Source: Planctomycetota bacterium (GTDB lineage: Bacteria > Planctomycetota > Planctomycetia > Pirellulales > UBA1268). From it: a stretch of DNA of 43,940 bases. The notes beneath the pieces are model-generated. The model saw only the letters and a program-made list of their open reading frames with translations. It was not told the origin of the DNA and searched no databases. The number at the start of each line of letters is the position of its first letter. Within the stretch, counting starts at the first letter, position 1. The translations under genes and the position numbers were made by a program. Positions 37,541 to 39,944 of this stretch are shown here, in pieces. The stretch lies in the NCBI GenBank assembly GCA_003671185.1, contig QWPN01000005.1, positions 1 to 43,940 on the forward strand, given 5' to 3'.

Positions 37541-38283
37541 ACCCGCTCGTGCTGCCACTCGTGATCGGGCTGGTGGCCCTGCTCTACGCATCGGTGGGGC
37601 ATGCCGGCGCCACCGGGTACATCGCGGCGATGTCGCTGCTCGGGCTGCCGCCGGATGTGATTCGGCCCACGGCGCTGGTGCTCAACGTGGTCGTGGCGGC
37701 GATCGGCAGCGCCCAGTTCTTCAGGGCGGGCCACTTTCGCCGCCGGCTGTTCCTGCCGCTGGTCGCGGGCAGCGTGCCCTGCGCGGCGCTCGGCGGCACC
37801 GTGAAGCTCCCCACGGCCGTGTTCGAAACGCTCCTCGGCGGCGTGCTGCTCATGTCGGCGACGCGGATTGTCATCGAATGCTGTCGCCGGGGAGCTGCGG
37901 AGCCGGCCGCGAATCCCGACGGCCCCGTCGCCCCGCTGCCGCTCGTGATGCTGGGCGGGTCGATCGGCATGCTCTCCGGATTGACGGGCGTGGGAGGTGG
38001 CGTGTTTCTCACGCCGGTGTTGCTCGCGCTGCGGGCGGCGCCAGTCAAGCAAGTGGCCGCGGTCACGGCGCCCTTCATCCTCGCCAACTCGCTGGCGGGG
38101 CTGGCGGGAGGGCTGGCAGCCGGTGGCACGCTGCCGGAGGTGCATCTGTCACTCGTGGTCGCCGCCATCGTCGGCGGCACGATCGGAGCCCAGTTGGGCG
38201 CCTTCCGGTTGCCGGTTCGTGTCCTGCGGCTGCTCATCGCCGCGGTGCTCGCGGTGGCGAGCGTCAAGCTGCTGGCGATCTAG
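37537..38283 (+). CDS. TauE/SafE family membrane exporter
   Basis: This 248-residue protein has about eight hydrophobic helices in two repeats: VGHAGATGYIAAMSLLGLPP in the first and GGSIGMLSGLTGVGGGVFLT in the second, the family's glycine-rich hallmark. Family members are linked to export of sulfite, sulfoacetate or related organosulfur anions, though many are unassigned. It is coupled to the DUF2237 gene by a four-base overlap. The stop codon TAG (38281-38283) is formed by the TA target site of the IS630 element plus the first G of that element. The reading frame still ends at a natural position because the sequence beyond the right IS end also supplies TAG. Confidence 0.92.
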   Translation: MNPLVLPLVIGLVALLYASVGHAGATGYIAAMSLLGLPPDVIRPTALVLNVVVAAIGSAQFFRAGHFRRRLFLPLVAGSVPCAALGGTVKLPTAVFETLLGGVLLMSATRIVIECCRRGAAEPAANPDGPVAPLPLVMLGGSIGMLSGLTGVGGGVFLTPVLLALRAAPVKQVAAVTAPFILANSLAGLAGGLAAGGTLPEVHLSLVVAAIVGGTIGAQLGAFRLPVRVLRLLIAAVLAVASVKLLAI

Positions 38284-39700
38284 TGTCTTGAGTTATACGG
38301 ATCACACCTGATCCGCAGGCGTGCTGGCGTGCCGGGGTCGCCCGTGCCGTCTCGCCGGACGTTCGCTACGGGCTTCCTGCCCTGCGCTCACTCGGGGGAA
38401 ACCGCGCTTCGCCTTCGTGGCTGCGCTCGGTTTCCCACGCCGCTCGACTGGCACGGGCTACCCCTCGCACAATCGATGGTCAGGAAACCCGTACGCGCGA
38501 GTTTCACGTGTGATCCGTATTAGAAGTGCGTTGACTACTCTTGCGCCTTCCGCCGGGCGGCCCTACATTCCTTACAGGAACCCGTTGTCCTGCAAGGAGG
38601 TGGTGGATGGCGAACGGCCGACCGATGGCGGTGCTGGAAGTCAGCGACGCGGAGCGTCGCGAACTCGAGTCGTTGGCGCGGCGACGCAAGACCGCGCAGG
38701 CATTGGCTTTACGTGCACGGATCGTGCTGCATTGCGCCGAGGGGCTGACGAACATCGAGGTGGCGACGCGCCTTGGCGTGGCGCGGCCGACGGTGGGCAA
38801 GTGGCGGCAACGGTTCGTCAGCCATCGGCTCGACGGCCTGCATGACGAGCCTCGGCCGGGAGCTCCTCGATCGATTACCGACGACCACGTCGCCAAGGTG
38901 GCGACGCTGACGTTGGAATCAAAGCCCAAGAACGCCACTCATTGGAGCACCTGCTCTATGGCGGAGCGAGCGGCCCTTCCCAGACGGCAATCAGCCGGAT
39001 TTGGCGGGCTTTCGGCCTCCAGCCCCATCGCGAGAGCACGTTCAAGATCAGCGAAGACCCACAGTTCGTCGACAAGGTTCGTGACGTCGTCGGCCTGTAC
39101 ATGAGCCCGCCAGACCATGCTCTGGTGCTCTGCGTTGACGAAAAGAGCCAGGTGCAGGCACTCGATCGCTCGCAGCCGCTGCTGCCTTTGCAGCCCGGCT
39201 CTCCGGAGCGGCGGACGCACGACTACTACCGTCACGGCACGACAAGCCTCTTTGCCGCCCTCGATGTCGCCACCGGAGCCGTGATCGGCAAGTGCCTCCG
39301 GACGCACCGGCACCAGGAGTTTCTCGCCTTCCTGCGGCATCTCGATAGGACGCTCGACACGCAGCCCGGGCAGGAGATTCACCTCGTGATGGACAACTAT
39401 GCCACGCATAAGACCCCGGCTGTGCGGCGCTGGTTCCAGCGCGACCCCGATTACCACGTTCACTTCACGCGCTACGAGCGCCAGTTGGCTCAACCAGATC
39501 GAACGGTTCTTCGCCGAGATCACGACGCGGTGAATTCGCCGCAGCGCCTTCCACAGTGTCGCTGCCCTCGAACAGGCGATCCGCGACTACCTCGACGAGC
39601 ACAACAAGAAACCCAAGCCGTTCGCCTGGACGGCCACGGCAGATACGATCCTTGAGCGTGTCGCGAATGTTTGCAAACGAACTTCCAGTTCAGGACACTA
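38281..39700 (+). mobile_element. IS630-family insertion sequence (decayed) flanked by TA
   Basis: The element runs from 38283 to 39698 with TA at 38281-38282 and 39699-39700, as expected for IS630/Tc1-type insertion. The left end reads TAGTGTCTTGAG and the reverse complement of the right end TAGTGTCCTGAA. After removal of the nested palindrome (one TTA copy kept), the first 25 bases of the two ends agree at 20 positions. Length without the nested insert is about 1.19 kb, normal for the family. It holds one transposase gene, now broken. It lies directly after tauE. Confidence 0.88.
38296..38519. repeat. 224-bp nested palindromic element inside the IS630 left end (MITE/REP-like)
   Basis: The outer arms TACGGATCACAC (38296-38307) and GTGTGATCCGTA (38508-38519) are perfect inverted repeats flanked by TTA on each side (38293-38295 and 38520-38522). 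The middle arms at 38334-38348 and 38450-38464 match 14 of 15. The inner arms GGGAAACCG (38396-38404) and CGGTTTCCC (38428-38436) are perfect. The left end also folds on itself (CGGATC-acacct-GATCCG, 38298-38315). No open reading frame of note is inside. It interrupts the IS630 terminal repeat, so it inserted after the IS. The source and mobilising enzyme are unknown. Confidence 0.8.
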
Positions 39701-39701
39701 G
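38607..39701 (+). pseudogene. IS630-family transposase, frameshifted and interrupted
   Basis: ATG 38607 has AAGGAGG six bases upstream. The N-terminal helix-turn-helix part is intact (LTNIEVATRLGVARPTVGKW). A one-base deletion near 38970 (expected A-L-S-Q-T-A) shifts the frame. The DDE part then continues well, with ALVLCVDEKSQVQALDRSQP and HLVMDNYATHKTP giving two catalytic Asp. A one-base insertion near 39474 within the expected TPTSAS restores the first frame, where SWLNQIERFFAEITTR is followed at once by an in-frame TGA (39531-39533). The remaining reading frame (AFHSVAALEQAIRDYLDEHN) runs through the right terminal repeat to TAG 39699. Three lesions make activity unlikely unless frameshifting and readthrough both occur. 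Confidence 0.9.
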
Positions 39702-39706
39702 CTGTC

Positions 39707-39739
39707 CGTGGACAAAGTCATCCCTGACCGTTGTCCACG
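39707..39739 (+). terminator. Hairpin just beyond the IS, possible original tauE terminator
   Basis: CGTGGACAA (39707-39715) and TTGTCCACG (39731-39739) form a perfect nine-base-pair stem with a 15-base loop. Before the IS inserted, this stem would have begun six bases after the tauE stop codon. It lacks a T run. The following 39740-39944 holds no gene I can support. Confidence 0.4.
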
Positions 39740-39944
39740 TGGTCAATCGGTGGAACACCGAGGGTTTCCCGGTCGACGAACCTCGCATCCTGCTCCGGCA
39801 GACGTGTTCCACAGGCTGCCAGGGGCGCCGCTCGGTCGGCGGCCGCCTTCGGGGCGAGAGCAGCCCGAGAACGACCCCCCCGGGCGACGGCGTGCCGCTC
39901 GGGAACGAGCATGGGCCGCACTCGGTGGCCGCGGCCCGCGGCCA

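What the first reader, a model, noticed from the sequence alone, without database searches (positions are those of the whole stretch)
38283..38530. Palindromic 224-bp element nested inside the terminal repeat of an IS630 copy
The left IS end looks poor until the 224-bp palindrome and one TTA copy are removed. Then the first 25 bases agree with the right end at 20 positions (GAAGT and CGTT line up). This dates the palindrome after the IS and shows a 3-bp TTA target duplication. The element has three nested inverted-repeat tiers and no coding capacity, so it looks like a MITE or REP-type element mobilised in trans. I do not recognise it as a named family.
Basis: partly seen in the sequence, partly recalled or inferred. 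Interest (0 to 1): 0.72.

Follow-up and report, generated by a model that had tools for sequence, protein, structure and literature searches.

The report
Mini-transposon carrying a widespread bacterial palindrome
A 224-base, gene-less mobile element has jumped into the end of an older transposon in a planctomycete-type bacterium; it carries inside it a second folded repeat found in most sampled genomes of that bacterial family, and its relatives lie mostly between the tail ends of facing genes, often exactly on a stop codon.

Summary
Confirmed: a 224-bp palindromic element (38296-38519), flanked by TTA on each side, sits in the left end of a decayed IS630 copy; without it and one TTA, 20 of 25 end bases match the right end. 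It is a MITE: 13 matches here cover most of it, and its end motif occurs in 33 places against 0 for the reversed motif. Of 38 end pairs, 22 carry the same 3-bp TNA on both sides, 0.6 expected. The likely driver is another IS630 lineage with similar ends in congeners, not found in this 85%-complete genome. The two inner palindrome tiers are a separate 136-bp core with strong covariation: 52 copies here, matches in 60 of 72 family genomes and 0 of 74 others. Related IS copies have captured cores too. Elements favour convergent gene ends (18 of 25; 22% expected) and often sit on a stop codon, though given the gap the stop excess is weak (p 0.07). Verdict: new variant of a known kind (RUP-like IS630 MITE); the TNA duplication is unusual for IS630, and the core fits no family tested.

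The parts
38283..39698 (+). host IS630-family copy, transposase split over two frames (38541-39104 HTH part; 38942-39655 DDE_3 part)
   Evidence: NCBIfam transpos_IS630: 144.5 bits for the DDE part (cut-off 100), 75 bits for the HTH part (below cut-off).
38293..38295 (.). left copy of the TTA target duplication
   Evidence: 3-bp TNA rule.
38296..38519 (.). 224-bp MITE
38296..38324 (+). left MITE end, like the transposase C-terminal-side end of an IS copy in G003 (27 of the first 29 bases)
   Evidence: Counted by eye on the sequences printed; 20 of 26 against the N-terminal-side IS end.
38333..38468 (+). 136-bp palindromic core found across the family
38334..38464 (.). outer stem of the core (arms 38334-38348 and 38450-38464)
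   Evidence: in the alignment 11 of 13 pairs of this helix have changes on both sides.
38361..38391 (.). first inner hairpin of the core
   Evidence: Helices 2-3; positions converted by hand from alignment columns.
38393..38439 (.). second inner hairpin of the core
   Evidence: helix 4 lies inside it.
38494..38519 (-). right MITE end, like the transposase N-terminal-side end of the IS (22 of 26)
38520..38522 (.). right copy of the TTA target duplication

Best explanation
The 224-bp element is a MITE of an IS630-family insertion sequence that duplicates 3 bp, TNA, on insertion. SHOWN: terminal repeats shared with transposase-bearing elements of congeners; 3-bp TNA direct repeats; many copies; nesting inside an older IS630 copy of a different lineage. 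SHOWN: its inside is a separate 136-bp repeat, found across the family and mostly without these ends, with base pairs kept through double changes. INFERRED: the MITE arose when an IS copy that had picked up a core lost its transposase gene, and was then moved in trans by the IS630-like transposase, which is now lost from this genome or missing from its assembly. SHOWN: elements sit mostly between convergent genes, often with a predicted stop codon as the TNA, so that the duplicated stop leaves the gene intact. INFERRED: this comes mainly from tolerance of, or preference for, short convergent gaps rather than from recognition of stop codons.
For: Copies: 13 matches spanning at least query 15-220 of 246. 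TIR motif in 33 places in this genome against 0 for the reversed motif; 50 in G002, 74 in G013. TSD: 22 of 38 TIR pairs identical at exactly 3 bp, 0.6 expected; of 27 pairs with TNA on both sides 22 agree, 10.5 expected from composition, p 7e-6, and 3 are inverted matches. Host IS end: TNA model 20 of 25, TA model 13 of 25. Driver: IS630 transposase in two frames (DDE part 121 and 136 bits, cut-off 100; HTH part 83 bits, below it) between such ends; L099 (1378 bp), L398 (549 bp) and L383 (763 bp) have TCA/TCA. Both IS end types, CGCGCG and CAGGCG, are in the MITE, one per end. Capture: a core between end and transposase frame in L099, and beside a transposase remnant in L398. Sites: 18 of 25 pairs convergent, 22% expected, p 2e-7; 40 of 69 TGA/TAA-side ends abut a predicted stop codon.
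Against: No transposase of this kind at E 1e-10 in G000 (85% complete) nor in G013, which has the most TIRs (97% complete). 5 of 27 two-sided TNA pairs disagree, among them two transposase-bearing copies (L096 TGA/TAA, L240 TGA/TCA). Empty sites are not decisive: in 6 diverged relatives the TNA model aligns best in 4 (margins 1-3 points), no duplication by 1 point in L354, TA by 2 points in L329. For a G000 copy the only orthologous pair seen (L204/L002) differs by more than the MITE. The core in the G000 MITE has the opposite orientation to that in L099 and L398, so at least two captures must be assumed. The convergent-gap test compares elements of several genomes with a background from G000 alone.
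Confidence: 0.88

Rival explanations
1. REP- or BIME-like element moved by a RAYT (Y1) transposase.
For: Palindromic, intergenic, high copy; Y1_Tnp matches occur in 26 of 72 family genomes.
Against: No Y1_Tnp match in this genome; no core at E 10 in 8 fetched RAYT-like loci, out of matches in 26 genomes; terminal inverted repeats with a 3-bp TSD do not fit the recalled behaviour of RAYT elements.
Confidence: 0.04
2. The element duplicates TA, the classical IS630 way; the TNA is only flank.
For: The classical duplication of Tc1/mariner relatives is TA (PMC7386202, passages); the element ends start with TA; at one diverged empty site (L329) the TA model aligns best by 2 points.
Against: 13 of 25 matches at the host IS end against 20; flanking TNA is directly repeated in 22 of 27 cases; the TA model is not best at the other 5 of 6 diverged empty sites.
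Confidence: 0.06
3. The MITE recognises stop codons, or a DNA feature at them, as its target.
For: 40 of 69 TGA/TAA-side ends abut a predicted stop against 21% of non-disrupting TNA sites, p 3e-11; 13 of 22 TSD-matched elements, p 1e-4; conservation in congeners stops exactly at several junctions.
Against: Given the gap each landed in, 16 of 25 at stops against 13.4 expected, p 0.07: short convergent gaps hold little else that is TNA. In the own genome alone 8 of 19, p 0.03.
Confidence: 0.15
4. Core covariation is neutral, made by hairpin-templated correction of quasi-palindromes rather than by selection.
For: A palindrome can be corrected arm by arm (recalled mechanism); no orientation bias of cores in tandem gaps, 22 against 25.
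Against: Columns outside the predicted helices are also nearly invariant over 43 diverse cores, for instance around TCGCCGGACG.
Confidence: 0.35

Closest known systems
RUP of Streptococcus pneumoniae (MITE of IS630-Spn1)
   Same: Short, no genes, ends shared with an IS630-family IS, about a hundred copies, reported by its discoverers to land in other IS elements (passages of PMC2229807 and PMC3049150; the latter finds no support for an IS preference)
   Different: RUP inserts at TA, is AT-rich and 107 bp; here a 3-bp TNA duplication, GC-rich sequence and a second independent palindrome inside
ERIC and Correia/NEMIS
   Same: Intergenic palindromic repeats with TIR and TA at the termini (table in PMC2229807, passages)
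   Different: Other sequences and phyla; no second family-wide core known to me inside them (recalled)
GTAG/CGTC-tagged REPs
   Same: Dispersed palindromic repeats, GTAG ones also reported from the PVC group that includes Planctomycetes; mostly downstream of coding regions (PMC3733652, abstract and passages)
   Different: Those are 20-40 bp; the core is 136 bp with several helices, and no RAYT association was found here
Fot elements (pogo, IS630-Tc1-mariner group)
   Same: A 3-bp duplication within this transposase supergroup
   Different: TAA in the Fot elements, TNA here in bacteria (passages of PMC7386202)

Membership tests
MITE of an IS630-family IS | Short, no need to encode a protein, terminal inverted repeats | tested here: met
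   224 bp, 33-nt arms 76% complementary
MITE of an IS630-family IS | Ends shared with an IS that encodes an IS630 transposase | tested here: met
   Against one IS end 22-24 of 26 bases for three of four MITE ends compared, 20 of 26 for the left end of this copy, which is closer (27 of 29) to the other IS end
MITE of an IS630-family IS | Driver present in the same genome | tested here: not met
   None at E 1e-10 in G000 (85% complete); present in 8 of 22 genomes of the genus. This weakens a claim of present mobility, not of origin
MITE of an IS630-family IS | TA target duplication, usual for the family | tested here: not met
   3-bp TNA. Three transposase-bearing copies show it too (L099, L398, L383), two do not (L096, L240); so I call it a variant lineage
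MITE of an IS630-family IS | Transposition in trans | not testable with these tools
   Needs an assay
REP/BIME | RAYT in the genome, or repeats flanking a RAYT | tested here: not met
   (8 loci); Y1_Tnp in 26 of 72 family genomes
Rfam RNA families | Match at gathering score | tested here: not met
   Window 37900-39900: 4 matches up to E 1, all below gathering score
IS5-type elements with TNA target | IS5-type transposase between these ends | tested here: not met
   The transposase found with these ends is DDE_3/IS630. No separate search for IS5 transposases was made; TNA as an IS5-subgroup trait is recalled

The most novel reading that the evidence does not exclude
An IS630-family lineage has evolved a 3-bp TNA integration reaction and settles on the stop codons of convergent genes, duplicating the stop so that genes survive; its MITEs ferry an unrelated 136-bp palindrome with several helices that has its own way of spreading and a selected function (for example a two-way terminator or structured transcript) throughout one planctomycete family.
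Probability: 0.25. Interest if true: 0.78.

Novelty: new variant of a known kind. Interest (0 to 1): 0.6.

Why it matters
It gives a dated nesting (MITE inside an older IS) and a visible path from IS, to IS with passenger, to MITE. It shows a 3-bp TNA duplication in a bacterial IS630 lineage; in the listings and passages I saw there was no report of that. It uncovers an abundant covarying palindrome, 52 copies in 2.75 Mb, not found outside one family in the genomes searched (with few candidates scored per genome), whose spread and function are open. Frequent insertion at the stop codons of facing genes is a simple, testable example of a mobile element sitting where it does little harm.

Tried and rejected
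Rfam: nothing above gathering in window 37900-39900. RAYT/REP: rejected for the MITE, not supported for the core. TA duplication: disfavoured, but diverged empty sites do not settle it (TNA model best in 4 of 6, no duplication in L354, TA in L329). Palindrome as normal IS end: rejected on one relative. Strong claim of stop-codon targeting: the spike (40 at distance 0, at most 3 at any other distance up to 60) shrinks to p 0.07 when conditioned on the gap, so it is not my main reading. Core-poor MITEs L255 and L260 looked like pre-insertion sites but keep the left arm of the core, so I read them as deletions; likewise L122 against L207. No duplication could be defined for the core alone. Searches over other genomes scored few candidates each (5, 8), so absence outside the family is an indication, not proof. 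Gene calls come from a home-made codon model trained on G000. From the 38 pairs one chance pair (L011, 965 bp) was dropped before the conditional test; of the other 37, 25 were scored, 9 had no gene on one side and 3 lay inside a predicted gene. The covariation structure was derived from the same alignment it was counted on. Papers: searches. Read: PMC3733652 (outline with abstract, passages), PMC3049150, PMC2229807 and PMC7386202 (passages); all others listing only (for instance the other 17 listed of 24, and the four). Recalled, from no call: that RAYT elements lack target duplications, that IS5 subgroups use TNA, quasi-palindrome correction.

Full report
OBSERVATION. Re-reading the window and a script place an IS630-family copy at about 38283-39698 between TA duplications in CTAG. 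Its left end is interrupted by 224 bp (38296-38519) flanked by TTA on both sides. Removing the 224 bp and one TTA gives 20 of 25 matches with the other IS end; a TA-duplication model gives 13 and no removal 14. The nested inverted repeats are real and the stretch folds better than all 200 shuffles. The host IS matched once in this genome; of 25 genomes searched two others hold a relative, a 93% copy in G003 that matches only query 460-1181, and a 68% relative in G074 whose left end has no palindrome. So the element came after the IS.

IT IS MULTI-COPY. In the own genome (G000, 2.75 Mb, 166 contigs, 85% complete) 71 matches at E 10 or less were reported, down to chance level; 13 of them span at least query 15-220 of 246. 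Many others cover only query 49-184, the 136-bp core. The end motif TACGGATCACACRTGA (up to 2 mismatches) occurs 33 times in G000, where the motif read backwards occurs 0 times; 50 in G002, 74 in G013, 17 in G009, 13 in G005, 9 in G003, and 0-2 in the other 16 of 22 genomes, where the backward control also gives 0-2.

TARGET DUPLICATION. Among the 288 loci then held, fetched largely because of end-motif or core matches, 38 pairs of ends lie 60-1600 bp apart; 22 have identical flanking 3-mers, 0.6 expected; identity at exactly 2 bp is seen once (2.4 expected), at 5 bp once, at other lengths from 1 to 9 never. All 22 are TNA. One of the 38 (L011, 965 bp) is a chance pair. Where both flanks are TNA, 22 of 27 agree against 10.5 expected from composition (p 7e-6), and 3 are inverted matches, so TNA is a duplication rather than part of the inverted repeat. 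Diverged empty sites do not settle the length: with 6 relatives the TNA model aligned best in 4, by 1-3 points, no duplication by 1 point in one (L354), TA by 2 points in one (L329).

DRIVER. In G003 the end motif lies 99 bp upstream of a reading frame. A search with its first 33 residues led to elements in relatives with two overlapping frames: an HTH part (166 aa) and a DDE_3 part (193-208 aa); NCBIfam IS630 121.5 and 135.9 bits for the DDE part (cut-off 100), 82.8 for the HTH part, below it. Elements with both ends and transposase sequence: L096 1157 bp, L099 1378 bp, L398 549 bp, L383 763 bp, L240 773 bp; L099, L398 and L383 have TCA/TCA, L096 (TGA/TAA) and L240 (TGA/TCA) do not match. The frames meet at a run of C and T, suggesting a frameshift, not tested. 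The N-terminal-side ends mostly read ...CGCGCG and the C-terminal-side ends often, not always...CAGGCG; the 224-bp MITE has one of each, and its left end matches the C-terminal-side end of a G003 copy at 27 of 29 bases. The DDE part is found at E 1e-10 in 8 of 22 genomes of the genus, not in G000 and not in G013.

THE CORE. A query of the element matched 60 of 72 genomes of the family (own included; 22 of 22 of the genus), mostly over the 136-bp core (38333-38468), and 0 of 74 genomes outside the family (in the relatives 5 candidates scored per genome). A covariance model gives 52 matches at E 0.001 in G000, 150 of 5922 candidates scored, one match partial at a contig end and three weaker than 1e-7. 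In 392 genomes drawn over the phylum it matched the own genome only (8 candidates scored per genome). Forty-three diverse cores, cluster representatives of 148 (mean identity 74%), give a consensus of an outer stem and inner hairpins: 21 of 28 pairs have changes on both sides, 134 such cells against 38.8 in shuffles; 93.8% of cells are paired against 82.4% in shuffles and 35-52% when slid. The structure came from the same alignment, which favours it. Of 111 full cores with at least 700 bp on each side, 89 have no MITE end within 400 bp. Cores also match inside transposase-bearing loci: in L099 (and L375, the same place) upstream of the transposase frame, in L398 (and L400) between the end and a transposase remnant, and in L390 and L396 (with L402), not looked at further. 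This shows how a core can enter the lineage, but the core in the 224-bp MITE lies the other way round, so it is a separate capture.

WHERE IT LANDS. In 273 kb of G000, 172 of 813 non-disrupting TNA sites are predicted stop codons (21%). Of 22 elements with exact TSD, 13 are at a predicted stop, 9 intergenic, 0 in genes. Of 69 TGA/TAA-side ends, 40 abut a predicted stop (p 3e-11); in the own genome 8 of 19 (p 0.03). But 18 of 25 usable pairs lie between convergent genes (22% expected from G000, p 2e-7), and given the gap each landed in, 16 of 25 at stops is only slightly above the 13.4 expected (p 0.07). I therefore claim a convergent-gap preference, with stop-codon insertion as its frequent consequence. 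In one search, matches of 16 joined sites in 22 congeners often stop exactly at the junction, as expected if the gene ends there. Cores without MITE ends also avoid divergent gaps: 36 convergent, 47 tandem, 2 divergent of 85, against 31, 131 and 33 gaps in the G000 sample.

KNOWN AND NEW. It works like RUP with IS630-Spn1 (passages): non-autonomous, shared ends, IS630-type driver. It differs by the 3-bp TNA duplication and by the second repeat inside. 3-bp duplications exist in the supergroup (Fot, TAA; PMC7386202 passages). In what I saw no bacterial IS630 with TNA was reported, and searches gave nothing on this core. The core is not a REP in the sense of PMC3733652 (20-40 bp, tagged), and no RAYT link was found. 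Its mode of spread remains unknown; I think it most likely moves partly as a passenger of IS630 elements and partly by a mechanism of its own, not shown.

Noticed in passing
L121, L130, L169, L082, L145, L227: Other dispersed hairpin modules sit next to cores: GTAGCACAGGTTTTCAACCTGTG, CCGACCGGCCGTAAGGCCGCGGGC, GCCCAATCGCGTAAGCGATGGGG; some elements look like mosaics of palindromes.
   Followed up: no
window 39520-39540 and L062: The sequence ACGACGCGGTGAATTCGCC, with a TGA that looks in frame near the end of the host IS630 transposase, is the same in the G000 and G003 copies.
   Followed up: no
L290-L296: Several RAYT-like genes of relatives have AAGGTGCCAGCCACCAAATCTGG or GGTGTCAGGAACC in their flanks.
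   Followed up: no
L042, L048, L156: Truncated left parts of the core lie beside full cores.
   Followed up: no
L255, L260, L122: Cores that seem deleted between short similar stretches of the two arms, leaving 10-17 nt of the left arm.
   Followed up: partly
L117, L118, L161: Records titled Candidatus Kuenenia stuttgartiensis and Planctomicrobium piriforme carry the core; they may be misnamed members of this family.
   Followed up: no
L266 left flank: About 80 bp ending exactly at the insertion site is repeated at 79-90% identity in many places of many congeners, perhaps a repeated C-terminal domain.
   Followed up: no
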